Shown: positions 36,043-63,820 of the stretch, in pieces
Layout: each line of letters opens with the position of its first letter
Position numbering within the stretch: the first letter of the stretch is position 1
Origin: Clostridia bacterium
Lineage (GTDB): Bacteria > Bacillota > Clostridia > Oscillospirales > Acutalibacteraceae
Assembly: GCA_017546665.1 (NCBI GenBank)
Contig: JAFYSE010000037.1
Coordinates: 1 to 63,820, forward strand
Reading direction: 5' to 3'
DNA length: 63,820 bases
Translations under genes and position numbers: made by a program
Notes under the pieces: model-generated
The model's database searches: none
The model's input: the letters and a program-made list of their open reading frames with translations, nothing else
Told to the model about the DNA's origin: nothing

Positions 36043-36916
36043 TTACAAACTCTCCTTCCTCATAGCACAAAACAGTGTTATTAACAAAATGTATTGAAAT
36101 ATCACCATTGGCATTTATCATAACCTTATCTATCACATCAAACATCAGTTTATAGTCAAGATTATCTATGTAGCTTTGTGTTTCAAGGTATTCCTTGAAA
36201 GCTTTCGTATATTCTTCATCCTTAAATTCTGTACAACAATCAAACTTTGCGGACACAAGGGAAAGTACATCATTAGCAAGTATTTTAAAGTTCTTTGTTT
36301 GCTGTTCCATCATATAGCCTAATTCATTTTCTCTTTTCATTATTCCTAAATCCGGCGTATATGATTTTGTTTCAGTAGTCTTTCCCTCAACAAGACAGGG
36401 ATTATCTATAACTGAATTTAATATACAAAGAATAGTATTAAACATAACCTCATCATCAATATACTTTTTCGTTTTACAAAGATTTTCGCAAAACCACTTT
36501 TCTCTATTTGAACGGGTTATAAATTTCCTTATGTATCTTTCCCCGCAGGTGGAACAAAAGGTATGAGTTTTTAGGAATTTCACTTCCCTTGTATCCTTTT
36601 CTCTTGTTCCACCTTTGCTTTTCTTTATGCCAAACGCTATTGAATATGTATCTTCCTCAACAATTTTAGGGTACTGCTCATCACCGACATAGTGTGCATT
36701 TTCGATTATTCTTGCAACCATATTCTTATTCCAGATATTCTTTTCCTTATAATATGTAACTTTTCGCTCGGTCAATTCATCAGCAATAGTTTTTAGAGTT
36801 GAGCCTGACAAGTACTTTTCAAATACTTCGGATACAATCGTGGCTTCAGCTTCGTTCACAATAAAATTATTATTCTCAACAGAATATCCGTACAAACAAA
36901 CTCTTTTACCCATCAA
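36029..36916 (-). CDS. Serine-recombinase-like protein without catalytic domain
   Basis: A 295-residue protein that starts directly in the Recombinase domain (VCLYGYSVENNNFIVNEAEA, then the TLKTIADELTERKV and ENAHYVGDEQ blocks). It continues into a zinc ribbon (FCSTCGERYIRK ... CENLCKTKK) and a C-terminal helical part. The resolvase catalytic domain with its serine is absent, and no upstream frame supplies it, since its start overlaps the preceding recombinase stop by 4 bp (ATGA). It may bind att-like DNA or pair with either active recombinase as a directionality or specificity partner. Confidence 0.85.
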   Translation of the reverse strand: MMGKRVCLYGYSVENNNFIVNEAEATIVSEVFEKYLSGSTLKTIADELTERKVTYYKEKNIWNKNMVARIIENAHYVGDEQYPKIVEEDTYSIAFGIKKSKGGTREKDTREVKFLKTHTFCSTCGERYIRKFITRSNREKWFCENLCKTKKYIDDEVMFNTILCILNSVIDNPCLVEGKTTETKSYTPDLGIMKRENELGYMMEQQTKNFKILANDVLSLVSAKFDCCTEFKDEEYTKAFKEYLETQSYIDNLDYKLMFDVIDKVMINANGDISIHFVNNTVLCYEEGEFVNAAC

Positions 36917-38448
36917 AAATCAACTCCTAATCTTATTCCTGCAAACAATTCAAAAACAACTTTATTGCCCGGAAATATATATACCTTTTCAACAATCATT
37001 TCAAAACACTTATCATCAAACTCAAACAATGATGCAGGAGATTTTTCAAGAACAGATTTGAGTTTTCTTATCTTCTCAATAATCATCTCATCCTCATCAT
37101 CAGCAATAAGTTTTAATCTTTTATCTCGAAGTGCATTTAACCTATTCATTATTGCTGTTGTTTTCTCATAATAAGAAACATCATCAATGATATTTTTTGT
37201 TTTAAGCTCGTTATACATACTGTTTTGCTCTGATAAAATAGCAATTTCTCTATTTATACTTGAGATTTCTTCGTTCATACTTGTAATACTTGTTCTAATT
37301 GCTATTAATTGAGATAAAGTCTTATCAACAATTTCACTTTCATATAAACGAAGCTTGTTATATGCTCTAACAAAACATTTTTCTAATATTTCGTGCTTAA
37401 TATTAGGTCCTTCACACTTACCCGAAGATAACTCATCGTGAATACATCCCCAATACAGTTCTCCGGAAGATTTTATCTTTCCGTAGCTCCATCCACAATC
37501 ACCACAGTAAATCTTTTTATCAAATGGTGTATGTGAAATTCGTTTCGCACTCTTATTCGGTTCATTTGCAACAGCAATTTTTTCTTGAACCAATTTAAAA
37601 TCTTCTTTTGAAACAATGCCCTGATGGGTATTGGTAACATAGAATTTTTCAACTTGACCTCTGTTTCTATGTTTTTTGAATGGCAATATATGTGGAGTAT
37701 AGCTTTTCTGCCACAAACTATCACCTATGTATTTTTCATTTTTCAGTACATATTGAACTGCTGTTTTATCCCATACTCTATCGGTCTGCTCTTCTTCGTT
37801 AATTATCTCTGCAACCTTTGTCATACCGTTGCCTGATAAATATTCCTTAAATATACGTTGAACTATTGGTAATTGTTCTTCGTTCGGAACCAAATTCCCG
37901 TCAATTAAATCGTATCCGTAAGGAGCCGTTGTAGTCTTAAATTCACCACGCTCCATTCTCATACGAACAGCTGTAGATACTCTTTTAGAACCTGCCATTG
38001 CTTCACTTTGAGCAAATGCACTTTTCACATACAATATCATTTCGGAGTTCATTGTTTCCGTGTCGATATTATCGTTTTCAAATAAAACCGTTGTTCCATA
38101 GGATTTGAGCAATCTTATATTTTCTATACACTCAAGAGCATTTCTTGCAAATCTTGATACGCTCTTTACGATAATGCGGTCAATCTTGCCTTTCTTCGCA
38201 TCAGCAACCATTCGTAAGAACTCGTCTCTTTTTTCTGCACAGGTGCCTGTGATACCTTCATCAGCATAAATATCAACAAGCACCATATTCTTGTTTCTGC
38301 TTATGAAGTCATTATAATATTTGACCTGAGCAATAAAAGAGTTCATCTGGTCATCTGAATCCGTTGATACTCGGCAATATGCCGCAACTCTTAATATATC
38401 ATCAGTTTTTTTATTCAATTTCGGATTGATAACTTGTACTTCTTTCAT
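36913..38448 (-). CDS. Large serine recombinase, 511 aa
   Basis: A complete serine recombinase: catalytic domain with RVAAYCRVSTDSDDQMNS, YADEGITGTCAEKR and KSVSRFARNALE, a Recombinase domain (FKTTTAPYGYDLIDGN), a zinc ribbon (YCGDCGWSYGKIKS ... GCIHDELSSGKC), then a coiled coil (about 375-450). It is the first gene of a three-gene recombinase operon and is clearly diverged from the third. It is preceded by a small SHOCT-like gene. Two active recombinases plus one inactive partner is an unusual integrase set. Confidence 0.93.
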   Translation of the reverse strand: MKEVQVINPKLNKKTDDILRVAAYCRVSTDSDDQMNSFIAQVKYYNDFISRNKNMVLVDIYADEGITGTCAEKRDEFLRMVADAKKGKIDRIIVKSVSRFARNALECIENIRLLKSYGTTVLFENDNIDTETMNSEMILYVKSAFAQSEAMAGSKRVSTAVRMRMERGEFKTTTAPYGYDLIDGNLVPNEEQLPIVQRIFKEYLSGNGMTKVAEIINEEEQTDRVWDKTAVQYVLKNEKYIGDSLWQKSYTPHILPFKKHRNRGQVEKFYVTNTHQGIVSKEDFKLVQEKIAVANEPNKSAKRISHTPFDKKIYCGDCGWSYGKIKSSGELYWGCIHDELSSGKCEGPNIKHEILEKCFVRAYNKLRLYESEIVDKTLSQLIAIRTSITSMNEEISSINREIAILSEQNSMYNELKTKNIIDDVSYYEKTTAIMNRLNALRDKRLKLIADDEDEMIIEKIRKLKSVLEKSPASLFEFDDKCFEMIVEKVYIFPGNKVVFELFAGIRLGVDF

Positions 38449-51990: not shown

Positions 51991-54900
51991 TTACGCAGCT
52001 GCTCCAATCCAACCGTAACCCTGAACAGCCATATCAACAAAGTGATTTATAAGCAAATTAACTTTTGCATTAAAAGACACCTTATCATAGCTATCAGGCA
52101 AGTCTGCATCGAGAGAATTTGTAACTGCAGTAATAACCTTTCCTTTTGGTTGCTCATCTTTGTACCAATCTATAACGAACAACGATTGTTTATTTTCAGT
52201 GAGCTTCTTATACAGATTCTTTGCAGAAAGCTTAACTTTTTGCTCTTCAGCTTTTGTAAGTTTCTTACCGGCTACAAGCAAATCATATATTTCAAGTTCT
52301 TCTTCAGTTAAACCTTCTGTGTTAGCTCTGTTGTCTTCTTGCTGAAGTTCCTCAAGCAGTTTGACAAGTTGCTCATAATAATCTTCATTTTCTGAACTTC
52401 CTGCATTATAAGAATCTATGATTCCCTTATACCTCTGAGAAAAAGCGAGACGGGTACAATTCTTATTGAGCATTTGTTCAAGAGCCTTTTCAATAAATGC
52501 TTTAAGGTCATCGATCTCGATAGCCTTGTACTGAGCTTCTTTTATTTCTTTTCTTAACTCTTCAGCATCTATTTTTGAAAGGTCAATTACTTTAGATTTA
52601 TAAATAACAATTTCTTGTCCGTCATCACTGCTATTTTCGGCAGAAACACTTGAATCAAGAAGCTGATTCATTTTAGCTCTTGCACGATTAACCTTTTCGT
52701 CATCAATAGTGCGATAGAACAAACCATGAAGATAAACAAGCGGTGAGAACTTTGCATTATACCACTTCTTTTCAAACACTTCAGGCTTGGATGCTTCATA
52801 GAGATTCACTAAAGTATTAAGAATAACTTTGAATTTCTCTTTACCTTCATCCTTTGCAAGAATGGTATCGTAAGCATTTCTCAATTCATCCAAACGGTCA
52901 AGAGTATTAGACTCTGCAATAATATTCTCAAGATTGATATTCAATGACATTAAGAACTCATCAGCTTCAACTATTGTGCTATCAATATATTCAATAAGTT
53001 TATCAATATCTTTAGCCGGGAAATCGTCACCATTGTTGCCGGTTGCGTACTGTGACAAGGCTTTTTTCATGTACTTGAACACATTTACATAGTCAACAAC
53101 CAAGCCGCTTGACTTATTAGGATATACTCGGTTTGCTCGAGCTATAGCCTGCATAAGTGTGTGTCCCTTCATGGGCTTATCAAGATAAAGAGTAGAAAGA
53201 TTCGGCACATCAAAACCTGTAAGCCACATAGCACACACAAATACCAACTGCAGGTTATCGTTTACATCTTTGAATCTGTCCTCAATATCCTTACCATCAG
53301 CATTTATTGCATTCATCTTTGCACGATGAGTTGATATATCAAGCCCATACTTTGCAAACTTATCCGTTTCATCTGCATCTTCGGAAATGATAACTGCCAT
53401 TTCAACTCTATTCATATAGTCGAGAATATCTTTTAATCTATCTCTTTCTTCTTTTGTGGTGGCTGCATTTCTTTCCTTGATTATGTTCTGTTTTTCGATT
53501 GCCCAATAATGCTGAACCTTATCATACATCTTAACTGCGGTGAACTTATCAACGGATACAACCATACCTTTACCAAGAAAACCTCGTCTTGGGAAATGAT
53601 ATGCAATATCCTGAGCCACCTTATCAAGTCTGTCTTCTCTCTTAATAACCTCAAGTATACGGGAAGCAGAGTTTTCAAGAAGCCTTGTTTCATCTTCGTT
53701 AAGATTTTCTTCCTCAATAATATCAAGAACGTCATCATCAAGGAAATCATTCTGAAGCCAAACAGACGGAACTCGTCTTGAATAGAACAGAGGAACTGTA
53801 GAACCGTCTTCAACGGACTGAGCAAAGTTATATTCGGAAACATAGTCACCGAACCACTGGTTAGTAAGTCTTTTTGCACCAAGCAAAGGAGTACCTGTAA
53901 ATGCAATATAGTTAGCATTAGGCAGAGCTGTTCTCATGTTCTCTGCAAGATCCTTATACTGAGTTCTGTGTGCTTCATCAACGAGAACAATTATATCGTC
54001 ACGGGTTGAAAGAACAGGGTATTTCTTTCCTTTGTCGTAACGGAATTTATGTATAAGAGTAAAGATAAAGGATTTATTTGTTTGCAGGAACTCACGAAGT
54101 TGTTTACCATTTTTAGGCTGACATTCTTCATTTGCACCAATAACCTCTGTGCGAACAAAGTTCTTATGAATCTGTGTGTCAAGGTCATCTCTATCAGTTA
54201 TGACAAGGAATGTAAAGTTACCTTGTAATTTTCTTTTAACTTTACGGGCAAACATAACCATTGAATAAGATTTACCCGAACCCTGAGTATGCCAAAATAC
54301 ACCCAATTTACCTTTGAGCTCTTTTCGGTTCTCCATTGATTCCATAAGATTATTGACACCCAAATACTGATGATTCTTAGCAATAATCTTGATAGATTCG
54401 TTTTGGAAGAGTATGAAGTTTTCTATATAGTCTATGAGCTTTGCTTTATCAAGTAAGCCATCAATAAAGAATCGGATAGAACTGTTGTTAGCATCCGTTG
54501 AATTTCTAATTGATTCTCTGTCAAGACCTTCTTTTTCTGAATGAACCTTTAACCATTCAAAGAAATATTCATAGGTAGCATTAAACGCACCAAGTCTTGT
54601 TTCTAATCCGTTCGATAATACACATATCTGATTAAAAGCAAATAGATTGGGAATATCCTTTTTGTAATCCTGAAGATTTTTATTATATGCTTCTTCAACC
54701 TTAACAATACTGTTTTTAAGTTCAATAAACACAAGCGGAAGACCATTAACAAAAACAATTACATCTGGTCTTCTGTAATATGATTTACCTTGTATCCACA
54801 TTTGTGAAACAGCAGTAAAGGTATTATTAGTCGGCTCATTGAAATCAATGAGCTTGACAAAATCAAAGTCTTCCCTACCATTTCTACGAACAGTAATCTT

Positions 54901-55215
54901 AATACCATTTCTGATTTGATTATATAACTTGTAATTAGTCGCAACTATATCTGTACCGGTAAAATCTCGGCGTAAATCTTTAACGATATTCTTTATATAC
55001 TGTTCATCTATGTCAGGATTGATTTTTTTGAGAGAGTCTTCAAGAATGGTCGGCAAAACACACTCCTTTTTAGAAGAGCGTCCCGTTCCGTCGTTTAAAT
55101 CGTCTCGCTTGTTTGGGTCGGCATCGCAGGTTATGATGTCGTACTCAAAAGGAGCAGTATTTAATTTTGAGAGTATGGCACGTTCAATATCGTCTTCTGA
55201 TATGAAGTTTCTCAT
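51991..55215 (-). CDS. hsdR: Type I restriction enzyme, R subunit
   Basis: A 1074-residue translocase/nuclease. The N-terminal PD-(D/E)xK nuclease has D151 (RRPDVIVF), E165 and K167 (FIELKNS). The SF2 helicase follows with Walker A HTQGSGKS (309-316), ITDRDDLDTQ, DEAH (413-416), TGTPL and QAIARANR. A C-terminal helical domain binds the methyltransferase. Together with HsdM and HsdS it cleaves unmodified DNA far from its recognition site after translocation. It is 19 bp downstream of hsdS and appears full length. Confidence 0.95.
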   Translation of the reverse strand: MRNFISEDDIERAILSKLNTAPFEYDIITCDADPNKRDDLNDGTGRSSKKECVLPTILEDSLKKINPDIDEQYIKNIVKDLRRDFTGTDIVATNYKLYNQIRNGIKITVRRNGREDFDFVKLIDFNEPTNNTFTAVSQMWIQGKSYYRRPDVIVFVNGLPLVFIELKNSIVKVEEAYNKNLQDYKKDIPNLFAFNQICVLSNGLETRLGAFNATYEYFFEWLKVHSEKEGLDRESIRNSTDANNSSIRFFIDGLLDKAKLIDYIENFILFQNESIKIIAKNHQYLGVNNLMESMENRKELKGKLGVFWHTQGSGKSYSMVMFARKVKRKLQGNFTFLVITDRDDLDTQIHKNFVRTEVIGANEECQPKNGKQLREFLQTNKSFIFTLIHKFRYDKGKKYPVLSTRDDIIVLVDEAHRTQYKDLAENMRTALPNANYIAFTGTPLLGAKRLTNQWFGDYVSEYNFAQSVEDGSTVPLFYSRRVPSVWLQNDFLDDDVLDIIEEENLNEDETRLLENSASRILEVIKREDRLDKVAQDIAYHFPRRGFLGKGMVVSVDKFTAVKMYDKVQHYWAIEKQNIIKERNAATTKEERDRLKDILDYMNRVEMAVIISEDADETDKFAKYGLDISTHRAKMNAINADGKDIEDRFKDVNDNLQLVFVCAMWLTGFDVPNLSTLYLDKPMKGHTLMQAIARANRVYPNKSSGLVVDYVNVFKYMKKALSQYATGNNGDDFPAKDIDKLIEYIDSTIVEADEFLMSLNINLENIIAESNTLDRLDELRNAYDTILAKDEGKEKFKVILNTLVNLYEASKPEVFEKKWYNAKFSPLVYLHGLFYRTIDDEKVNRARAKMNQLLDSSVSAENSSDDGQEIVIYKSKVIDLSKIDAEELRKEIKEAQYKAIEIDDLKAFIEKALEQMLNKNCTRLAFSQRYKGIIDSYNAGSSENEDYYEQLVKLLEELQQEDNRANTEGLTEEELEIYDLLVAGKKLTKAEEQKVKLSAKNLYKKLTENKQSLFVIDWYKDEQPKGKVITAVTNSLDADLPDSYDKVSFNAKVNLLINHFVDMAVQGYGWIGAAA

Positions 55216-55233
55216 AATCTCCCTCCTTTAATG

Positions 55234-56436
55234 TTAGACTTCAAGTTTACCACTCATCAGGCGGGGTAATAATAAGTCTCGCTGTTCGATAAGGTTTTTG
55301 TTCTTTAGCATGATTGTATAAATCTGTTTATAGATGCTTTCAACTCTTTTATCATACTCTAAAACAAGTTCTTTTGTAGGAACCAAGAATTTGATTTTAT
55401 TAATTATAACTTGGCTGATGTTTTGTTGTGCAGCACCGAAACTAATGTTTTCCAAGTACTTTTTATTTAGTTTCAAAAAATGGAACATAAAGATGTTACT
55501 AACATACGATTTCGGCATAAAAACACAGGTGGCTTGACTACAGGATATTTCTTTTGTGGTAATACCTAATTTACCTACGCCTGCATACATAGAACAAAGC
55601 AAAGCACCGACGGGTATTAGTTTAGCAGCACTATTTTGTAAACCTGCCGACGTAATATGCTCTTCTGTATCTATTATTAAAGAATCTAATAGTTCACCTG
55701 TTTTTATCCATCCAATAGTGCCACCATCATAGTATTCTGGATTGCTTCTACTTGGAGTTCCACCTGATGAGGTGTCAAACATTTCGTTTATCTTTTTATA
55801 TTCCCAGCCAACCGGAATGCCATTCTCAAATTCAGCAGTTTCATAACCAGGGAAACGGAAACGAACAAACCACTCTTTATAGAGATTTTCTGCCATCTGT
55901 TCTAATATAGCAATTCGCTTGTTGTTGTTCTCAATCAAGTTATCATAATTAGAAAGAACGGATGCAATCTTTTTTTGTGTTTCTATATCGGGCAAATCAA
56001 CCTTAAACTTTAACAAATCCTCGTTTCTCAAACTTGCTCGTGTTATCAAAGAAGCAACCTTTAAGAAATTTGCTCTGAATTGAGCAGTTCTAAAGTAGTA
56101 TCCCATATACAAGGGGTACGTATTTTCTGTGATGGGTCTTAATCTCTTACAAAAACCGTTATAAGTTGCTTTGGGGTAATCCTTCAATGCAACACAACTC
56201 ATTCCAAGTTCATTTGCAGTTTCACTTGTTCTTGTAATAAAAACGTCCCCGGCTTTGATAGAATAAGAACGTTGTTCTTTATCAGAGGACTGAACTAAAT
56301 CTTTTATCTCGTCAGGTATAAAATAATTATTAAACACAGTTGAAAAACTTAAAAAAGGAAATCCTGTTCCGAAACAATCACCCGATTTAGACAACCCATT
56401 ACTTACTTCATATAAATCGCCTAATCTGTATTCCAT
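55234..56436 (-). CDS. hsdS: Type I restriction enzyme, specificity subunit
   Basis: A 400-residue subunit with two target-recognition domains (about 5-150 and 205-360). Each is followed by a conserved helix: DIETQKKIASVLSNYDNLIENN ends the first and the C-terminal LVLEYDKRVESIYKQIYTIM region the second. The second recognition domain starts IPVGWEYKKINEMF. DNA specificity cannot be predicted by eye. ATG 56436, one base after the hsdM stop, is preferred over upstream TTG/GTG inside hsdM. No inverted-repeat invertase partner gene is seen. Confidence 0.93.
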   Translation of the reverse strand: MEYRLGDLYEVSNGLSKSGDCFGTGFPFLSFSTVFNNYFIPDEIKDLVQSSDKEQRSYSIKAGDVFITRTSETANELGMSCVALKDYPKATYNGFCKRLRPITENTYPLYMGYYFRTAQFRANFLKVASLITRASLRNEDLLKFKVDLPDIETQKKIASVLSNYDNLIENNNKRIAILEQMAENLYKEWFVRFRFPGYETAEFENGIPVGWEYKKINEMFDTSSGGTPSRSNPEYYDGGTIGWIKTGELLDSLIIDTEEHITSAGLQNSAAKLIPVGALLCSMYAGVGKLGITTKEISCSQATCVFMPKSYVSNIFMFHFLKLNKKYLENISFGAAQQNISQVIINKIKFLVPTKELVLEYDKRVESIYKQIYTIMLKNKNLIEQRDLLLPRLMSGKLEV

Positions 56437-56437
56437 A

Positions 56438-58177
56438 TTATTCACCAAACAATCTTTCAATGTTTACAGATATATTGTTTTCTATTTCTTTGGCTTCTTC
56501 ATTAAGCATAGTAAGTTCACTATTTAAAGACAGCATTTTTGATTTAAATTCTTCTTCCGTCAGACCATCATCTTCAATAACAACACCTACATAGCGTCCT
56601 GCATTAAGTGAATAATCTTGTTCCTCTATACCATCTTCACCCTTTAATGATGCAGCTTTACAAAGACCAATAACATCACGGTATTCACCATCAGGAAATC
56701 TTTCAATAAGCCAATTAATTTGTGCTTGCCAATAATCTTTAGTTTTTATTTCTTTATTGTCTGCACTTTCAGGAGCGTTGTCGAGTTCTGTTTTATACTC
56801 GTCTATAAGGTCAGCAAATGCCTGAGTATCACCATTATAAAGCTTTGTAATAATAGCTAAATTCTTAATCTGCTCATCGGAGAATTTTCTGTGAGCTTTA
56901 TCAATTTGTGTAAAGATATTACGAGCATCTACAAAAAGTATTTTGTCTTTCTTATCTGTTTGAGCTTTTTTCTTATCAAAAAACCAAAGAGTTGCAGGAA
57001 GAGTAACGGATGTGAACATATTAGAAGGCAAAGTCACCATCTGCGAGATAATACCATCTTCAATCATTTTCTTTCTGATTTCATATTCGGAACCCGAAGC
57101 ATCGGAGGCGGAGTTTGCCATAACAAGTGCTGCTCGACCATTATCGTTCAGAGCAGTAGCAAAGTATCCAATCCAAAGGTAGTTTGCATTGGGTACGGTT
57201 TCTTTTTTATCAGATGCTTTCTTTGCGGTTTTAGACTTGTTTCTGGGCACACCGTAGGTATTAAAACGAGCATCGTCAATAACCTTTTCCACAACAACTT
57301 CATCTACATTGAAGGGAGGATTCGCCATAACGTAGTCGAACTGACCGAAGGCATCATAGGGGTCAGAGTAGAAAGAGTTTGCTTCGGTGATTTCGCCACG
57401 AACATTGTTAAGCAAAAGGTTCATTTTAGCAAGCTTAACTGTATCGGGTTCTTTTTCAACACCATAACAACGAAACTTCATCTGTTCATCTTCATTGGCG
57501 TTATGCTCATGCATATATCTTGCAGCCTGAACGAACATACCACCTGAACCGCAAGCCGGATCAAGGAATTTCTTATCTCCACATTCAGGATTAAGAACAT
57601 TAACCATATAACGAACAACAGTTGCAGGCGTATAGAATGCGCCACCGTCTTTACCTTCTGAAAGAGCAAAGTTACCAAGGAAGTATTCGTAAATTTCACC
57701 GAAAATATCAATAGTACAGTTTTCAGGAATATCCTTAAAAATACGAACAATATTTGAAAGAAGCTCAGGTTCTTCTTCGGGAACTAACTGTGCATAAACC
57801 TCTTTCGGAAGAACACCATACATTTTGGGATTTTCATCCTCAATAGCTTCCATTGCTTTCTTTACAAGCACAGCTTTATTAGCATCATCAGGAGCATCAT
57901 TGATAGCATCATAATATGCACATTCAGGCAGATAAAAACCACACTTCTCCATAGCAATATCTTTGATTGACTTTTCAGCTCTGCCACCCTTAGTACGGTT
58001 ATATTCTGCTTCAATTTCATCTTTATGCTGTTTAAATAAAATATCAGCATACCTCAAAAAGATAAGTCCGAGTATAGGCTGACCGTATTTGTTTGCGGCA
58101 AGATGAGCACCTGCACGAAGAACATCTGCAGCATGCCACAGGTTTTCTTTTAAGGTTTTGAGTTCTTTATCTGTCAT
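56438..58177 (-). CDS. hsdM: Type I restriction enzyme, methyltransferase subunit
   Basis: A 579-residue N6-adenine methyltransferase: N-terminal HsdM_N helical domain, GGAFYTPATVVRYMV, SAM motif LDPACGSGGMFVQ (205-217), catalytic NPPF (286-289) and a C-terminal coiled region that contacts HsdS. It is the first gene of the hsdM-hsdS-hsdR-DUF262-unknown-unknown-WYL block. The AT-rich upstream gap contains TATAAT on the minus strand (58232-58227) with a poor -35, a plausible promoter. Confidence 0.95.
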   Translation of the reverse strand: MTDKELKTLKENLWHAADVLRAGAHLAANKYGQPILGLIFLRYADILFKQHKDEIEAEYNRTKGGRAEKSIKDIAMEKCGFYLPECAYYDAINDAPDDANKAVLVKKAMEAIEDENPKMYGVLPKEVYAQLVPEEEPELLSNIVRIFKDIPENCTIDIFGEIYEYFLGNFALSEGKDGGAFYTPATVVRYMVNVLNPECGDKKFLDPACGSGGMFVQAARYMHEHNANEDEQMKFRCYGVEKEPDTVKLAKMNLLLNNVRGEITEANSFYSDPYDAFGQFDYVMANPPFNVDEVVVEKVIDDARFNTYGVPRNKSKTAKKASDKKETVPNANYLWIGYFATALNDNGRAALVMANSASDASGSEYEIRKKMIEDGIISQMVTLPSNMFTSVTLPATLWFFDKKKAQTDKKDKILFVDARNIFTQIDKAHRKFSDEQIKNLAIITKLYNGDTQAFADLIDEYKTELDNAPESADNKEIKTKDYWQAQINWLIERFPDGEYRDVIGLCKAASLKGEDGIEEQDYSLNAGRYVGVVIEDDGLTEEEFKSKMLSLNSELTMLNEEAKEIENNISVNIERLFGE

Positions 58178-58313
58178 TTTCTCTACTCCTTAATTGATAG
58201 CAATAATAAGATATAATTATACAAATATTATAATATCATAAAATGCACATCAATTGCAATACGATTACTTATTTTTCATATTGTGGTGTCGGTTTTTGGC
58301 TCACCAAAAAAGA

Positions 58314-58336
58314 AAAGCCACCCGAAGGTGGCTAAA
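58314..58336 (-). terminator. Terminator of the AAA-protease/zinc-ribbon operon
   Basis: TTTAGCCACC / GGTGGCTTTT-type hairpin (arms 58315-58323 and 58328-58335); on the minus strand it is followed by TTTTCTTTTTTGG. It lies ~30 bp past the DUF4236 gene stop. Confidence 0.85.
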
Positions 58337-58366: not shown

Positions 58367-59431
58367 TTAGCATAAAGTTTTAACAATATCTGATGGGTCC
58401 TTCCCCTGCAAATTTTGTTCAATAAACCATTCTCTACAAAAAACTTTCGATAACAAACAATTATTTTTATACATCACTTTTACATTAACATTTTCTACAG
58501 GTAAAAGTGCAAAGGTATCCCTTGCTACACGAACAGCAATAGCACAGTAATAATCTTCAAAAGCACTTTTATTTAACCTATCAAGCTTTATATCAATAAT
58601 AGAAAACTCTACATCTATCATTGAACAATCATCAGTTGAAAATTCAAAATCTTCCGCATAATCGAGCAAATCATCATAAGGATTTACCGTACTGATTATC
58701 TCCAATAAAGCATCTATATTGCCGTCAAAAACATCAACCGCTTTTTTATGTAGGTAATCCCATGTTTCCGGAACAACATCATCCGATGTTGGCGCTCTAT
58801 GAGAAATAACGTCAATCCAATCAATTGCAACATCGCAATTTTCAAAAATAAATTTTATCGTATCGTAGGTGATTTCATCCGATTTCTTTTTCTCAGCTAA
58901 ATTTGTTACTGATACTATCTCATCTGTTGAAGCAATTACTGATTCATCAACTTCAGATACAGTATTGGTATGACAATTCTCAGAAACATCAACAACAGTA
59001 TCTATAGGTTTATTCTTCTCAGTTAATGTTCCATCCTTTGAAGGAACGTTCGTCGGTTGATCTTTAGTATCTTCGCATACTGAATACAGCGGAGATACAG
59101 GCTTAGTAGTGATTTTTTGAGAAATGGTATTATCACCATATAAATTTGAATTGTTTGATGAAGACGGCAAATCACTTTGTTTTTCGCCAAAGAGTTCTCC
59201 AAATAAACCTCCACTTTTTTTCTCAACTTTTTTCTTTGATGGACTAGAAGTATCAGTATAATAAATACCGGTTCCTGGAATACCTATACTTGTAGTTGTC
59301 TTTCCTGTATTGAAATTATAAGTTTTTCTGAATCCAGGAACACCTGCACTAATACTCACGCCCTTTTTCCCTAAATTCAATCTAACGCCCTTACATATTG
59401 AAACACTTTTTCTAAATCTTAATGAACCCAT
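58367..59431 (-). CDS. DUF4236 protein with unknown acidic C-terminal region
   Basis: A 354-residue protein. Residues 1-60 are a DUF4236 module (SLRFRKSVSICKGVRLNLGKKG, then VSISAGVPG and the GIPGTGIYYTDT end). A long polar, Ser/Thr/Asp-rich linker (about 65-190) is probably disordered. The last ~160 residues form an acidic alpha/beta part (FENCDVAIDWIDVISHRAP ... ENVNVKVMYKNNCLLSKVF) I cannot name. It is the last gene of the operon, 13 bp after the pseudo-RuvB gene. It lacks the zinc-ribbon module of the other three, so it may be an output or scaffold component. Confidence 0.75.
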   Translation of the reverse strand: MGSLRFRKSVSICKGVRLNLGKKGVSISAGVPGFRKTYNFNTGKTTTSIGIPGTGIYYTDTSSPSKKKVEKKSGGLFGELFGEKQSDLPSSSNNSNLYGDNTISQKITTKPVSPLYSVCEDTKDQPTNVPSKDGTLTEKNKPIDTVVDVSENCHTNTVSEVDESVIASTDEIVSVTNLAEKKKSDEITYDTIKFIFENCDVAIDWIDVISHRAPTSDDVVPETWDYLHKKAVDVFDGNIDALLEIISTVNPYDDLLDYAEDFEFSTDDCSMIDVEFSIIDIKLDRLNKSAFEDYYCAIAVRVARDTFALLPVENVNVKVMYKNNCLLSKVFCREWFIEQNLQGKDPSDIVKTLC

Positions 59432-59444
59432 TTAGACACCTCCT

Positions 59445-60386
59445 TTAGTGAAATGAATCAAGAATATTTCTTATAGAAGTATCACCCAAAGGTTGCTTAA
59501 TCTCCGCATGAAGATAAAGATAGTCAGAGATATACTTCAAAATACTCTTAATATTTTTAAAAGAATTTTGTGAGTTTGCTTCCTTTATGACTTTAATTGC
59601 CGTCTTAGTTAACTGAATATCATACAGAGAAGCAATTTCACGGATTTGCAGTTCTTCCAATTCATCTTTGCTTGGGGTAAATTCAATCACAAAATCTAAG
59701 ATGTTTAAAATTTCAGTTGGAATATCACTAATTGTTTCCGCAACAAAAACTGTCGTAAAAGGAGCTAAGTCCAGACGAATGCTCCGTGCCCCTTGTCCTT
59801 TTCCTATCGTAATTTCAATAAAAAAATCACTTAAAGCAGTGGAAAACAATTTCACGACATCCTTGTTAATCTCTGAACATACTTCATAAAGCAGAACTTC
59901 TCCAGGTTGCAAACTGGTAATAGTAGCCGCTAAATCGCTTGCTCTTTCTGCAGCTCTTGAATTAGTTCTCTTAAAATTGGTGACAGTAAAGTACGCATCA
60001 TCAACGACCTCAAGGAAATGCTTTCTAATCATATCACTTGCTGATACGATAGCAATATGTCCTAGCATTGCATCTGCCAAGTATTCGTAATAATCAGCCT
60101 CTTGTTGGTTCTTAAACAAATCAATATCCGTTCTTCTTTTGATGGCTACAGGTATTGAAAAATCGAAAAGATGTTTTGCTTGAGGATTCTGTTTAAAAAA
60201 TTCCATCCAATCTATCGGGGGAAGTATATTTGTTTTGTGGTAATCATTTCTGTACGGAATAACTGTATCGTTAAACCACTTTTCAGCTTCCTCTCGGTTT
60301 ATGAAATCTTTCACAACCTCAGCAAACCCGCACTTCGTACAAACATTATTTTGTCCACATTCAGTTTTACATACAGGACATTTCAT
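59445..60386 (-). CDS. Zinc-ribbon protein with a RuvB-like ATPase body lacking Walker motifs
   Basis: A 313-residue protein. Residues 1-48 are the shared module MKCPVCKTEC ... CTKCGF ... INREEAEKW ... PYR. From ~residue 108 the sequence follows the Holliday-junction ATPase RuvB: LGHIAIVSASDM at the Walker A position (RuvB has a GPPGLGKT loop there), ERASDLAATITSLQPGEVLLYE leading to the Walker B position (EVCSE instead of DEIH), then IGKGQGARSIRLDLAPFT, a near-exact match to a RuvB signature. The lid region ends with NIKSILKYISDY. Both ATP-binding motifs are lost, so it should be a pseudo-ATPase. Confidence 0.78.
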   Translation of the reverse strand: MKCPVCKTECGQNNVCTKCGFAEVVKDFINREEAEKWFNDTVIPYRNDYHKTNILPPIDWMEFFKQNPQAKHLFDFSIPVAIKRRTDIDLFKNQQEADYYEYLADAMLGHIAIVSASDMIRKHFLEVVDDAYFTVTNFKRTNSRAAERASDLAATITSLQPGEVLLYEVCSEINKDVVKLFSTALSDFFIEITIGKGQGARSIRLDLAPFTTVFVAETISDIPTEILNILDFVIEFTPSKDELEELQIREIASLYDIQLTKTAIKVIKEANSQNSFKNIKSILKYISDYLYLHAEIKQPLGDTSIRNILDSFH

Positions 60387-60410
60387 TTTTGTTCCTCCCG
60401 ATTTTGAATT

Positions 60411-61340
60411 TTAATTTAGTTCTTCCACATCTGAAAAGTTTGCATAATACCCATCGCCATACAATGCGATACCTTTGGCTGCTCTTTCCTTGTCAGAAGA
60501 AACCAACGCAAGAGGAGCATATAAACATTTTGCATTAAATCTTTTGCAAGAAGCAAGATAGAACTCCCTGTCTCTTTCAGAAAGAACGGGTTTGTTAGTT
60601 ACGCCAACGGCTACTTTCATCAAGTACAAAACATTATTTTTCTGCAAAGCGTAATTCGGAAATCCGTGTGCCCCCTTATGAGTTTCTAACACCGTGAATC
60701 CGTTTTTAGCAATATAGTGCTGCCCGACAATTTCCATTCCGAAGTCTAAAAGTTCTTCTTCTGTCATTAAGTCTTTTTCGGTGTATTGCGGAATACCATC
60801 GCCCCAATCTTTCACCTGCAGGCGAGGGTCTTTTCTTACAGTTAAGTTGCTAATATCCTTTCGGTTCAACAAGAATGGATCTTTGTTTGGGTCAATGACG
60901 ATACCGAGCAGGTGGGGATTGTCGTAAAGGATGTCGATGAATTTGTTTATATCCATAGTTATTACATCCTTAGAATCTCCTGCTACACGACCATTCATGT
61001 CGGAGTAAATAGCTATGTAATGACCGCCTCTAAATGGTGAAATGAGCAACTGTTTATCATTAACAGGGGCACTAACCCAAGAACCGTTTTCCACCAATCC
61101 CGCAAAAATCTTATAGAACCTATCGAAAGCCTCATCAGTTTTCAGTTCATACAGTTTTCTCTTAGCTTCACCAAAATTCTTAGGAGTGAAGAAGTGGGTG
61201 TTACGATAAGGGACAACAACTTGTTGTTCCCAAAACATCGCTTCTTCCTTGCTGATGAAAGTTTTATTCAGTTGGTCAAATCCACATTGAGGACATCTAT
61301 CATATCCCGAACACTCTGTTTTACATACTGGACATTTCAT
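60411..61340 (-). CDS. Zinc-ribbon protein with SseB-like domain
   Basis: A 309-residue protein starting with the shared module MKCPVCKTEC ... CPQCGF ... FISKEEAMFWE ... VPYR (1-47). Residues ~80-170 resemble an SseB N-terminal-type domain (LVENGSWVSAPVNDKQLLI, then HYIAIYSDMNGRV and LLGIVIDPNKDPFLL). The last ~100 residues (VLETHKGAHGFPNYALQKNN onward) have a strand pattern loosely like a PD-(D/E)xK nuclease, with the expected acidic residues replaced; this is speculative. It is 14 bp downstream of the LRR gene. Confidence 0.7.
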   Translation of the reverse strand: MKCPVCKTECSGYDRCPQCGFDQLNKTFISKEEAMFWEQQVVVPYRNTHFFTPKNFGEAKRKLYELKTDEAFDRFYKIFAGLVENGSWVSAPVNDKQLLISPFRGGHYIAIYSDMNGRVAGDSKDVITMDINKFIDILYDNPHLLGIVIDPNKDPFLLNRKDISNLTVRKDPRLQVKDWGDGIPQYTEKDLMTEEELLDFGMEIVGQHYIAKNGFTVLETHKGAHGFPNYALQKNNVLYLMKVAVGVTNKPVLSERDREFYLASCKRFNAKCLYAPLALVSSDKERAAKGIALYGDGYYANFSDVEELN

Positions 61341-61354
61341 TTTCTATTCTCCGT

Positions 61355-62272
61355 TTAACCAAGTGAATAAGGCTCATTGTTAATGAGTATCCACTCGTTT
61401 TTCCAATTCAAATTTGCTAAACCACAGCAGGCGTCAAGCCATTGCTTATCCAACTCAACATCTTCTTCATAGAAATCGCAATAGATGTTGCTCAACTTAT
61501 AGCATTGCTCTACTACATAGCGTTCGATACTTTTTATACTGCTTGGAAAAACAATGTTTTTTAGATTTTTGCATCTAAAAAATGCTCCACGCATAATAGT
61601 CTCAACGCCGTTTGGAATTATTAAACTTTCCAACTGTGAACAATGAGAAAACGAATACACACCTATTGAATTAACTTCGTCTGGAATCACTATGCGTGTT
61701 GCGGTTTTGTCCGAAACAAATAACAGTTTTCCAGTAGCTTTTTCAATCAAGCACTTGTTTTTGATGTAGTAGTTTTCATTACCTTTAGCAAGTGTAATAT
61801 GTTCTGCGCTAAAACAATGATCTCCTAAAAAGCGAATAGAAGATGGCAAGACAACCGATTTTATTGGACAACCATTAAAGGCATATTCTCCAATTTCCTC
61901 TACACCTTCTGGAATGTTAATTCTTTCGATATTTTTGTGTGCAAATGTTCTCGGTTCAATTTGTTTGATTGTATTAGGCAGAACAATTTCAGTTGCCTTT
62001 GAATCACAAGAACCGTCATGTTCAATTTTCTTCACACCATAAGGAACAACAATTTTCTTTTTACCTTTAATATTACATCTTTTAATAGTGAAATCTTCTA
62101 TCGTCCAATCTTGTAGGTTTTCCAGATAATTTTTACGATAAGGCTCAACAACATCAAGCAACCAGTTATTAGCATCATCTTGATTTATAAAAGTCGTAAG
62201 GAGTTCAGAGAAGCCGCATTGATGACACTCCTGTTTTTCCGAGCATTCCGTTTTACATACTGGACACTTCAT
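61355..62272 (-). CDS. Zinc-ribbon protein with BspA-type leucine-rich repeats
   Basis: A 305-residue protein. The shared N-terminal module MKCPVCKTEC ... CHQCGF ... FINQDDANNW ... EPYR (1-47) has cysteines at 3, 6, 10, 16 and 19. It is followed by five to six LRR_5 repeats (about 65-250: TIKQIEPRTFAHKNIERI, NIPEGVEEIGEYAFNGC, VIPDEVNSIGVYSFSHC, IIPNGVETIMRGAFFRC). No signal peptide is present, so unlike the dockerin LRR protein at 7998-9287 it should be cytoplasmic. Its ATG overlaps the protease gene stop (ATGA), giving tight coupling. Confidence 0.85.
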   Translation of the reverse strand: MKCPVCKTECSEKQECHQCGFSELLTTFINQDDANNWLLDVVEPYRKNYLENLQDWTIEDFTIKRCNIKGKKKIVVPYGVKKIEHDGSCDSKATEIVLPNTIKQIEPRTFAHKNIERINIPEGVEEIGEYAFNGCPIKSVVLPSSIRFLGDHCFSAEHITLAKGNENYYIKNKCLIEKATGKLLFVSDKTATRIVIPDEVNSIGVYSFSHCSQLESLIIPNGVETIMRGAFFRCKNLKNIVFPSSIKSIERYVVEQCYKLSNIYCDFYEEDVELDKQWLDACCGLANLNWKNEWILINNEPYSLG

Positions 62273-63820
62273 TTGATTTCCTCCGCAAAGGCTTCCCAGA
62301 TATATTTAATAGGACGGATATAATTGATTTCTTCAACTAATCTTGAATCGCCCTCTGTCTGAGAACCACACAAAATACCTACAACCAATCCGGTCTCACG
62401 GTCAATAACCGGACCACCGGAGTTTCCACGTTTCGCTTGCATATCAACAAACTGTTTTTCATAGCCACGCTGAATTTGAGTGGAAGCAATCTTTCCCTCA
62501 AAAACGCTGTGGTTCAATTTGTCTTCGCTGTCGCTCAACTTTGCACCAAACGGATAGCCAGCGAGAACTATATCATCACCAATACGAGACATTTCATTGC
62601 GAGCAAGCACAGGCATTTGTGGGAAATTAGAACCCTCTAATTTCAGCAAAGCAATATCAAGCTCTTTGTCCGCTTTAACAACGATTGCTTTATGCCATGT
62701 ATCATCGCCGCCAATTCTACCGGGGATGCGTACTCTTACAGCAAGCTCGCTCGCATTGTCAATAACGTGATTACAAGTTACTGCATATCCATCAGAGGTA
62801 AGAATAAATCCACTACCATAACCAACACCATCCCCCATTTTTGCCTTAATGAACAGGAGAGCGTTTAATGTGCGATTAAAGTTGGTTTCATAATCAAACG
62901 GCGTAGGATATTCTGTAGCAATATTCTTTTCGGCAATAGGAACAAACTGAACTGTGTCTGTTTTCTTTGTCAGCAGAGAACGATACACCTCCGGTATATC
63001 ATCACCGGTGAAAGTCGTTTTTTCTTCTTCGGGAATATTAAAGTCGGGGTATTTCTTTTCGAGGCGGAGATAGAGAGCACTCTTGCAAGCCTCAAAATAT
63101 TTCCTAACATCACGACCATTACCAAAGTCAGCGTTTTTGTGGGCTTCCCAAAACTCAAAGACTTTTTTAGTGTTTTCGATATAGTCATCCTGCAGAGTAT
63201 AGCTCTTACCGGCAAACATCTTTAAAATGTCAATCATTTCATTTGCCGAGTAATCCTCAAACAGAATGGTCTCGGTAAAGCGGCTTTTCAAGCCAGGGTT
63301 ACTTGATACGAACTGCTGCATAGGATGAGTGTAACCGGCACAGATTACGCACAATCTGTCTCTGTGGTTTTCCATCAACGCCACGAGGGTATCAATAGCT
63401 TCTCGACCAAAGTTTTGTCCTCGGTCGGTGTTTTCGTATAAACGGTACGCCTCGTCAATAAACAGAATACCATCTAATGCTTTTTCAACGACTTCTTTCG
63501 TTTTGATGGCGGTCTGACCGACATAGGACGATACCAAGTCTTCACGGCTTACTTCGATAACATGACCTCTGCGAAGAACACCTACATCGCAGAAAATATC
63601 ACCAAGCAAGCGGGCAACTGTAGTTTTACCTGTACCGGGATTACCTGCAAATACATAATGACCGGGAGCAGACTTTTCGCCGCCAATCAAGATGATTCTG
63701 CGGAGTTCTTTTACTCTCTGCTTCACACGTTCAAGACCAACAAGACTATCCAAACGCATAATTGCATCTTTCTTTGCTTCGGAAATTGCCTTGGCATGAA
63801 CGCTCAAACTTGCAGGAATA
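62269..63820 (-). CDS. AAA+ ATPase fused to trypsin-like serine protease, 5' end outside window
   Basis: The reading frame is open to the window edge, so the N-terminus is probably missing; TTG 63807 is only the first possible start (numbering from it). A CbbX/SpoVK-type AAA+ module covers ~15-270: Walker A GNPGTGKTT (55-63), Walker B ILFIDEA (114-120), and the lid motif FGNGRDVRKYFE. A chymotrypsin-fold protease follows (~320-510), with H347 in CNHVID, D384 in ELDIALLKL and S463 in KRGNSGGPV, so the triad is complete. No signal peptide or PDZ is seen in the window. It heads the operon with the three zinc-ribbon genes. It may couple ATP-driven sensing or remodelling to proteolysis. Confidence 0.9.
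   Translation of the reverse strand, partial: IPASLSVHAKAISEAKKDAIMRLDSLVGLERVKQRVKELRRIILIGGEKSAPGHYVFAGNPGTGKTTVARLLGDIFCDVGVLRRGHVIEVSREDLVSSYVGQTAIKTKEVVEKALDGILFIDEAYRLYENTDRGQNFGREAIDTLVALMENHRDRLCVICAGYTHPMQQFVSSNPGLKSRFTETILFEDYSANEMIDILKMFAGKSYTLQDDYIENTKKVFEFWEAHKNADFGNGRDVRKYFEACKSALYLRLEKKYPDFNIPEEEKTTFTGDDIPEVYRSLLTKKTDTVQFVPIAEKNIATEYPTPFDYETNFNRTLNALLFIKAKMGDGVGYGSGFILTSDGYAVTCNHVIDNASELAVRVRIPGRIGGDDTWHKAIVVKADKELDIALLKLEGSNFPQMPVLARNEMSRIGDDIVLAGYPFGAKLSDSEDKLNHSVFEGKIASTQIQRGYEKQFVDMQAKRGNSGGPVIDRETGLVVGILCGSQTEGDSRLVEEINYIRPIKYIWEAFAEEIK

What the first reader, a model, noticed from the sequence alone, without database searches (positions are those of the whole stretch)
58367..63820. 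Candidate new system: AAA+/trypsin protease with three zinc-ribbon partners and a DUF4236 protein
Five minus-strand genes with gaps of 14-25 bp or a 4-bp overlap and one shared terminator form one operon. The head gene joins a CbbX/SpoVK-type AAA+ ATPase to a complete trypsin-like protease. The next three proteins start with the same ~47-residue zinc ribbon and then differ completely (LRR, SseB-like, dead RuvB). This looks like one ATP-dependent protease read out by interchangeable adaptors. Its place beside a restriction block on a mobile element suggests defence or conflict. I know of no named system with this composition.
Basis: partly seen in the sequence, partly recalled or inferred. Interest (0 to 1): 0.85.

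Follow-up and report, generated by a model that had tools for sequence, protein, structure and literature searches.

The report
Motor-protease operon with zinc-ribbon proteins
The end of a bacterial gene cluster was found in which a motor protein fused to a protein-cutting enzyme sits beside several proteins that share one short tag and otherwise differ, and relatives suggest it belongs to a larger multi-gene machine that may protect bacteria from invading DNA.

Summary
[quoted passage not shown] But the "head gene" is cut by the contig end. A 63%-identical relative (G254, goat-rectum Clostridia MAG) has the whole operon: XRE, Hsp70, coiled coil, NrdG-like radical SAM, coiled coil, a 157-aa protein, ribbon-LRR, N-domain/AAA/AAA/trypsin, ribbon-dead RuvB, DUF4236. 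Anaeromassilibacillus An172 has a version with four AAA domains and a ribbon-RCC1 protein. A Calothrix plasmid has Hsp70, TPR, radical SAM, coil, N-domain/AAA/AAA without trypsin, then a (weakly similar) ribbon gene. A ribbon gene directly follows the AAA gene in 4 of 4 such loci, and in 0 of 55 control loci chosen by AAA similarity. So AAA plus ribbon looks like the conserved unit and trypsin a Clostridial addition. The RuvB body diverges fast, lost its ATPase motifs and C-terminal head, yet kept the hairpin by which RuvB binds RuvA. Best reading: a remodeller-protease steered by ribbon-tagged adaptors or baits, on a mobile defence island. Defence is inferred. "SseB-like" was not supported.

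The parts
62269..63820 (-). C-terminal part (516 codons visible) of a tandem CbbX/SpoVK-type AAA+ ATPase fused to a trypsin-like serine protease; 5' end cut by the contig
   Evidence: Pfam AAA 2.3e-17, AAA_lid_6 1.2e-7, Trypsin_2 6.8e-25; NCBIfam spore_V_K 2.7e-65, degP_htrA 3e-21, both below cut-off; 63% identical to residues 584-1096 of the 1110-aa G254 protein
62132..62272 (-). zinc-ribbon module 1 (47 codons; CxxC...CxxCGF...W...PYR)
   Evidence: alignments A1 and A5; z about 23 against shuffles
61355..62272 (-). ribbon + BspA-type leucine-rich repeat protein, 305 aa; start overlaps the protease stop by 4 bp
   Evidence: LRR_5 4.6e-38
61200..61340 (-). zinc-ribbon module 2
   Evidence: no Pfam hit to the body at E<=5; in 200 family genomes it matches only itself and its two paralogues' ribbons
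60246..60386 (-). zinc-ribbon module 3
59445..60386 (-). ribbon + ATPase-dead RuvB-like domain without the C-terminal head domain, 313 aa
   Evidence: RuvB_N 7.5e-15; Walker A 0/9, Walker B 2/10, sensor-1 1/9, Arg finger 0/7 of the columns invariant in three live RuvBs
59757..59816 (-). retained presensor-1 beta-hairpin segment of the RuvB-like body (about residues 191-210)
   Evidence: best-kept 20-residue stretch: 15/20 identical to the RuvB of the window's own genome
58367..59431 (-). DUF4236 protein with a conserved C-terminal domain, 354 aa
   Evidence: DUF4236 5.1e-19; N part 78%, linker 31%, C part 60% identical to the G254 copy
58306..58333 (-). terminator-like hairpin and T run after the last gene
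   Evidence: 7-bp stem, 4-base loop, T run

Best explanation
These genes are the 3' end of a roughly ten-gene operon. Its core is an Hsp70-like chaperone, coiled-coil proteins, an NrdG-like radical SAM enzyme and a tandem AAA+ protein of the SpoVK/CbbX class, followed by ribbon-tagged proteins. In Clostridia the AAA+ protein carries a trypsin-like protease at its C-terminus. Proposed mechanism: the AAA+ ring unfolds or threads a target, as CbbX does with its substrate (recalled), and hands it to the covalently attached protease. The shared zinc ribbon docks each tagged protein on the machine, and the variable body (LRR, RCC1 propeller, dead RuvB, an unassigned fold) decides what is bound, either as adaptor or as bait. 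The dead RuvB body lacks the ATPase motifs and the C-terminal head but keeps the hairpin that RuvA binds, so it probably docks on RuvA or mimics RuvB for an invader's protein. The system lies on mobile defence islands and most likely acts against phage or plasmid. Shown by sequence: composition, order, recurring linkage, loss and retention of motifs, fast divergence of the RuvB body. Inferred: that the window's missing 5' part resembles G254, docking, substrate threading, RuvA binding, defence.
For: Operon recurrence: G254, G106 and Calothrix pCAL6303.02 share radical SAM (38-42% identity), coil (25-27%) and N-domain/AAA (35-39% over the AAA part) proteins, and Hsp70-like proteins (27% Calothrix to G254; only 25%, E 5.5e-6, G106 to G254). 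A ribbon gene directly follows the AAA gene in 4 of 4 loci including the window; 0 of 55 control loci chosen by AAA similarity (median 3.7 kb) and none of 14 longer AAA-selected regions (L035-L045, L114-L116) has a ribbon-start ORF. Divergence window versus G254: AAA 67%, trypsin 60%, DUF4236 C part 60%, ribbons 60% and 52%, but RuvB body 23%. Of six ribbon bodies, five have a Pfam match and none is to an intact enzyme (LRR_5, LRR_4, RuvB_N twice, and RCC1_2 just below its cut-off); the sixth is unassigned. Dead RuvB: with RuvA domain III binding the presensor-1 hairpin from passages of PMC9477746 and PMC10272136. Context: serine recombinase and GmrSD in the window beside genes read by eye as type I RM; AbiEii, a Dam-type methylase and recombinases around G254. 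No match at E<=1e-40 in the 7 same-genus genomes listed.
Against: No experiment. Only three loci with the protease and one without. The Calothrix ribbon is only weakly similar to the window's (z 4 to 9), as is that of G106 (z 6 to 9). The upstream genes are not seen in the window's own 75%-complete assembly: only a DnaK start for Hsp70, no first AAA domain, no coil, and two partial radical SAM matches at 5e-13 and 3e-5 in other contigs. The DUF4236 linker (31%) also diverges, so fast change is not confined to ribbon bodies. Island context is shared by many unrelated genes. A relative of the AAA protein (28% over 996 aa) sits in a genome region with TerD, and another with kinase, PP2C and VWA genes, which may point to stress response. 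Hairpin retention: 4/8 versus 14/155 invariant columns kept in both dead copies, Fisher p 0.006, with the hairpin chosen after seeing the alignment. The ribbon pattern was also written after seeing the positives.
Confidence: 0.45

Rival explanations
1. A cytoplasmic protein quality control or stress-response machine, a relative of the Ter/TerY-P-linked multi-AAA proteins, that merely travels on mobile elements. Ribbon proteins would be substrate receptors for damaged host proteins.
For: Hsp70, AAA+ unfoldase and HtrA-like protease are usual parts of proteostasis (recalled); the AAA protein is homologous over 996 aa to one near TerD in G036, whose counterpart in G158 neighbours kinase, PP2C and VWA genes.
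Against: Patchy presence: 2 of 200 and 2 of 394 genomes, each count including the window's own; island neighbours in the window and G254 include restriction, AbiEii and recombinase genes; a RuvB decoy is not expected in quality control.
Confidence: 0.25
2. The ribbon proteins are clients rather than guides: precursors that the radical SAM enzyme modifies and the AAA-trypsin cleaves, so that the released bodies are the effectors.
For: Operons carry a radical SAM gene; in An172 genes read by eye as PqqD-like and a second radical SAM follow the ribbon gene; ribbon and RuvB body differ sharply in conservation.
Against: The radical SAM is nearest to the NrdG activase model, below its cut-off, rather than to peptide maturases; the Calothrix operon has the ribbon gene but no protease. 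Cleavage motifs were not searched for.
Confidence: 0.12
3. An abortive-infection system: ribbon bodies are baits, and engagement releases the trypsin domain to cut many host proteins and kill the cell.
For: Trypsin-like peptidases and inactive-enzyme modules are described in the NTP-dependent conflict systems of PMC7159879 (passages); the triad motifs are intact.
Against: Protease covalently fused to an unfoldase suggests fed, selective cutting; Calothrix lacks the protease; no toxicity data.
Confidence: 0.13
4. No system: neighbouring passenger genes on a mobile element.
For: Only one window copy; small number of loci.
Against: Same order recurs in different Clostridial families and in a cyanobacterium; 0 of 55 controls.
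Confidence: 0.05

Closest known systems
NTP-dependent conflict systems with MoxR-vWA, GTPase/Hsp70 or peptidase cores (Kaur et al. 2020, PMC7159879; start of abstract and passages seen)
   Same: ATP- or GTP-driven core, trypsin-like peptidases, Hsp70 in some, variable modules that are often inactive copies of host enzymes
   Different: Core ATPase is SpoVK/CbbX-class, not MoxR; no vWA Pfam domain in the nine G254 proteins scanned (VMAP and iSTAND not tested); the main text has no occurrence of CbbX, SpoVK or RuvB
SpoVK-type tandem AAA+ cassettes in extended type III-A CoCoNuTs (PMC11090510; section 10 and passages read)
   Same: Tandem SpoVK-family AAA+ in a defence operon, with LRR fused to the ATPase, Hsp70 and zinc ribbons elsewhere in the system
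   Different: No McrC, HEPN, CARF or VWA families listed for the operon proteins scanned; ribbons are on separate variable proteins; trypsin fused
CbbX / SpoVK / EccA AAA+ ATPases
   Same: Best sequence matches of the AAA domain
   Different: Below these equivalog cut-offs; tandem in relatives, with an N-domain without Pfam match and a C-terminal protease
HtrA/DegP trypsin-fold proteases
   Same: Closest solved relatives of the protease
   Different: Match limited to the protease domain, no PDZ family listed, and the fusion is to an ATPase; HtrA is ATP-independent (recalled)
Multi-AAA proteins near TerD or kinase/PP2C/VWA genes (L115, L116)
   Same: L115 protein homologous over 996 aa; a neighbouring coil is homologous to the operon's coil
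   Different: No ribbon-start ORF in the regions read; no trypsin seen
RuvB
   Same: Presensor-1 hairpin segment
   Different: ATPase motifs and C-terminal head lost, ribbon added

Membership tests
MoxR-vWA ternary conflict systems | MoxR-type AAA+ ATPase | tested here: not met
   Best matches are spore_V_K, EccA, CbbX; no MoxR in the 25 of 30 rows shown
MoxR-vWA ternary conflict systems | vWA partner gene | tested here: not met
   No VWA listed for nine of the ten G254 proteins (XRE not scanned; 25 of 26 rows shown for the AAA protein) or the five window proteins; the window's upstream genes are missing
MoxR-vWA ternary conflict systems | VMAP or iSTAND third component | not tested
   No search made for these
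Type III-A CoCoNuT with SpoVK extension | McrB GTPase and McrC homologue | tested here: not met
   None listed among operon proteins scanned
Type III-A CoCoNuT with SpoVK extension | Tandem SpoVK-family AAA+ | tested here: met
   G254 and Calothrix proteins have two AAA domains each; the window shows one, cut by the contig end
CbbX/SpoVK/EccA AAA+ class | Walker A, Walker B, pore-loop aromatic, AAA_lid_6 | tested here: met
   GNPGTGKTT, LFIDEAY, YVGQTA, AAA_lid_6
Trypsin-like serine protease, active | His-Asp-Ser triad with GNSGG | tested here: met
   By motif: TCNHV, the Asp, GNSGGP in window and G254; TCSHV and GCSGGP in G106; activity not testable
RuvB, active | Walker A and B, sensor 1, arginine finger | tested here: not met
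   0/9, 2/10, 1/9, 0/7 in the window copy
RuvB-like RuvA binder | Presensor-1 hairpin | tested here: met
   Segment retained by sequence; binding itself not testable here
SseB family | Match to the SseB Pfam domain | tested here: not met
   No Pfam family at E<=5 for the body or its halves
Known anti-phage system in PADLOC | PADLOC model covering the protein | tested here: not met
   Only partial protease or AAA matches, best RT-Protease_XI 2.6e-19 over 303-494; none for the other four proteins
Anti-phage defence system | Protection in a phage challenge | not testable with these tools
   Needs bench work

The most novel reading that the evidence does not exclude
A previously undescribed class of bacterial immune machine, present in Cyanobacteria and Clostridia: an Hsp70/radical SAM/tandem-AAA engine that accepts a common zinc-ribbon plug, so that dead host enzymes and repeat scaffolds can be added as interchangeable guides. 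In Clostridia it has become a covalent AAA+-trypsin protease. One guide is a RuvB mimic that places the protease on RuvA-bound Holliday junctions of invading DNA.
Probability: 0.25. Interest if true: 0.9.

Novelty: new variant of a known kind. Interest (0 to 1): 0.68.

Why it matters
AAA+ proteases known to me (FtsH, Lon, ClpXP, HslUV, proteasome; recalled) do not use a trypsin-fold protease fused to a CbbX-type ring, so this would be another way to couple unfolding to proteolysis. A shared docking tag on otherwise unrelated recognition modules would be a bacterial parallel to adaptor-swapped immunity. A RuvB-derived module that keeps the RuvA-docking hairpin but not the ATPase motifs makes a concrete, quickly testable prediction.

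Tried and rejected
Rejected: (a) that the five genes are a complete operon (frame open at the contig end; G254 has seven more upstream genes); (b) that the missing upstream genes are elsewhere in the assembly: the G254 Hsp70 found only the start of a canonical DnaK, the N-domain/first AAA part found only the window's own AAA, the coil found nothing (no positive control in that call) and the radical SAM found two partial matches, E 5e-13 and 3e-5, not opened; (c) SseB-like fold; (d) that the AAA-trypsin is common on plasmids or phages: no record covers 80% of it in either collection, no viral-contig relative, and DUF4236 and RuvB-body scans of viral contigs gave none (these pattern scans may miss distant relatives); (e) that ribbons are exclusive to the system: weaker ones occur in G559 and G528.

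Led nowhere: the genome-contig scan returned only the two loci already known; the class-wide protease profile found only the window at E<=1e-30 in 391 genomes. Literature searches for the composition showed no paper describing it: 1 paper; none; 655 papers, 15 listed, titles and abstract starts seen; 5; none; 4; the library lacks most subscription journals. A search for DUF4236 gave one paper, seen in the listing only. Plasmid searches with the Calothrix coil and ribbon found only Calothrix; four other plasmid AAA hits opened showed no such operon in their annotation. Of the radical SAM relatives on plasmids, seven were opened and none showed the operon (the Kovacikia record has no annotation and was read as ORFs).
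Full report
WHAT IS IN THE WINDOW. The five ORFs are real and ordered as described, with spacers of 13, 24 and 14 bp and a 4-bp stop/start overlap between the protease gene and the first ribbon gene. A terminator-like hairpin follows the last gene at 58333-58316. Pfam gives AAA, AAA_lid_6 and Trypsin_2 for the first protein, LRR_5, RuvB_N and DUF4236 for three others, and nothing significant for the remaining one. The AAA domain is nearest to SpoVK, EccA and CbbX models but below their cut-offs, and the protease is nearest to HtrA/DegP. Walker A, Walker B, the pore-loop YVGQTA and the His, Asp and Ser motifs are intact. The three ribbons are true paralogues: 25-27 of 47 residues identical pairwise, z about 23 against shuffled sequences. 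In the whole window a strict ribbon-start pattern matches only these three ORFs (the pattern was written after seeing them).

THE HEAD GENE IS CUT. The window is contig C50 of a 1.69-Mb assembly scored 75% complete, and the protease frame runs open to its end. In genome G254 the homologous protein has 1110 residues, and the window's 516 match its residues 584-1096 at 63%. The missing part there holds an N-domain and a first AAA domain. The missing part and upstream genes were not found elsewhere in the assembly; the radical SAM query gave two partial matches in other contigs, not opened.

THE WHOLE OPERON. G106 (identified likewise with Anaeromassilibacillus sp. An172) has two Hsp70-like genes (a weak match, 25%, E 5.5e-6, to the G254 Hsp70, and its paralogue), two unassigned genes, coil, radical SAM, coil, a 1693-aa N-domain/four-AAA/trypsin protein and a ribbon-RCC1 protein (RCC1_2 just below cut-off), then genes read by eye as PqqD-like and radical SAM. 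The second coil (27%), radical SAM (42%) and AAA (39%) proteins of the two operons are homologous.

A CYANOBACTERIAL VERSION. Searching plasmids with the G254 coil gave one record, Calothrix sp. PCC 6303 pCAL6303.02. Around the match lie, in order, Hsp70 (27% to the G254 Hsp70, 5e-31), a TPR protein, radical SAM (38%, 2e-42), the coil (25%, 1e-16), an 848-aa N-domain/AAA/AAA protein (35% over 888 aa, 3e-141) and, 3 bp later, a protein starting MNNCPVCNSEYTQGEVICPICSWDL with a coiled-coil body. There is no trypsin. The ribbon there is only weakly similar to the window's (z 4 to 9), so common descent of the ribbons is likely but not shown. The recurring unit is thus AAA followed by a ribbon gene, 4 of 4 loci; the protease is seen in the three Clostridial loci.

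CONTROL AND FREQUENCY. Of 55 loci whose listed match to the window protein lies in the AAA part (median 3.7 kb), 0 contain a ribbon-start ORF, nor do 14 longer AAA-selected regions (L035-L045, L114-L116; many are the same places as among the 55). AAA-trypsin matches spanning both domains were seen in 2 of 200 family genomes and 2 of 394 order genomes (only three candidates per genome were scored), each count including the window's own genome. A protease profile found 1 of 391 class genomes at E<=1e-30. In 398 family genomes it found 24 at E<=1e-18, of which two (own, G106) are below 1e-100 and the other 22 lie between 2.7e-22 and 8.2e-19; I did not open those 22. These genome sets overlap. The seven same-genus genomes listed have no match at E<=1e-40.

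RIBBONS ELSEWHERE. In 394 order genomes the ribbon profile matched 19 genomes at E<=1e-3. The five strong matches (E<3e-28) are in the window's genome and G254, both part of the profile, so that is circular. Five matches at 6e-12 to 3e-7 in G559 and one at 8e-9 in G528 are weaker. Six regions were opened (five ribbon contigs of these two genomes and one of G124; 4 to 14 kb each); three of the proteins look by eye like LRR or membrane proteins, and no AAA Walker A or protease serine motif occurs in any frame of the six. The other weak matches were not opened, save one: a G559 ribbon on contig C101 (E 5e-5) lies in a cluster with a related Hsp70 (34%), coils, AAA and a kinase, and An172 has a second cluster of this kind on C5 with two ribbon proteins, one of them RCC1. 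So the ribbon is a wider module that also accompanies other Hsp70/coil/AAA clusters.

THE RuvB MIMIC. Between window and G254 the AAA is 67% identical, protease 60%, DUF4236 N and C parts 78% and 60% but its linker 31%, the ribbons 60% and 52%, and the RuvB body 23% (the two LRR bodies are of different LRR types and align over too few residues to count). Aligned to live RuvBs of the three genomes, the window body keeps 0 of 9 invariant Walker A residues, 2 of 10 Walker B, 1 of 9 sensor 1 and 0 of 7 arginine-finger residues (G254: 1, 1, 1, 1), and both dead copies end before the C-terminal head. The best-kept 20-residue stretch in both is the presensor-1 hairpin segment: window copy 15/20 identical to the RuvB of its own genome; G254 copy 12/20 to that RuvB and 10/20 to the RuvB of its own genome. 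Of eight hairpin columns invariant in the live proteins the copies keep 7 and 4. Passages of PMC9477746 and PMC10272136 state that RuvA domain III binds this hairpin. A Fisher test of hairpin against the rest gives p 0.006, but the hairpin was chosen after seeing the alignment.

MECHANISM. I propose that the ring threads a target and feeds the attached protease, that the ribbon docks tagged proteins, and that bodies choose targets. Composition, order and motif states are shown; docking, threading and targets are inferred. Threading by CbbX-type rings is recalled knowledge. The role of the radical SAM and Hsp70 genes is open.

CONTEXT. Upstream in the window lie a serine recombinase (36913-38448), an IrrE-like peptidase, a Y-family polymerase, a WYL regulator and a GmrSD restriction protein, then three genes I read by eye as HsdR, HsdS and HsdM (51991-58177, not profiled). 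GC falls from about 0.38 to 0.33-0.36 from 33 kb to 60 kb and is 0.38 at the protease end. Around G254 are AbiEii, a Dam-type methylase and recombinases. This is a defence-island setting, suggestive only.

LITERATURE. Closest are the conflict systems of PMC7159879 (start of abstract and passages seen) and the SpoVK cassettes of CoCoNuTs in PMC11090510 (passages and section 10 read). PMC8195603 passages were also seen. Neither core matches. Searches for this composition found nothing, within the limits of that library and of a capped list.

VERDICT. I file it as a new variant of AAA+-centred conflict systems, with the defensive role unproven.

Noticed in passing
L126:3974-15655 (G106:C5) and L125:739-14153 (G559:C101): A sister cluster type: Hsp70-like, N-domain-like protein, coils, small ribbon protein, AAA and, in G559, a kinase; in An172 with a ribbon-RCC1 gene in front.
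   Followed up: partly
L116:4593-13453 and L115:7697-17550: A 1220-1250-aa multi-AAA relative of the operon's ATPase sits next to PP2C, VWA and kinase genes in one genome and within about 6 kb of a TerD gene in another.
   Followed up: partly
L159, L160, L162 (Moellerella, Polaromonas, Leisingera plasmids): A repeated five-gene cassette: AAA-domain protein, PIN protein, hypothetical, AAA family ATPase, 4Fe-4S single-cluster protein related to the operon's radical SAM.
   Followed up: no
L161:7715-10582 (Paenibacillus polymyxa plasmid): Radical SAM relative next to an AAA ATPase, DUF1257 and DUF2997 genes.
   Followed up: no
L152:9542-10645 (Niallia sp. XMNu-256 plasmid): A DUF4236 protein sharing the window protein's C-terminal domain (30%, 3e-12) about 7 kb from a type I restriction-modification locus, without AAA or ribbon genes annotated in the stretch shown.
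   Followed up: no
window 33000-60000: GC drop to 0.33-0.36, serine recombinase, IrrE-like peptidase, Y-family polymerase, WYL regulator, GmrSD and a type I restriction block read by eye: a likely mobile defence island.
   Followed up: partly
L034:2679-4074: In An172 genes read by eye as PqqD-like and a radical SAM (seen as two ORFs) follow the ribbon-RCC1 gene; possible peptide-modification partners.
   Followed up: no
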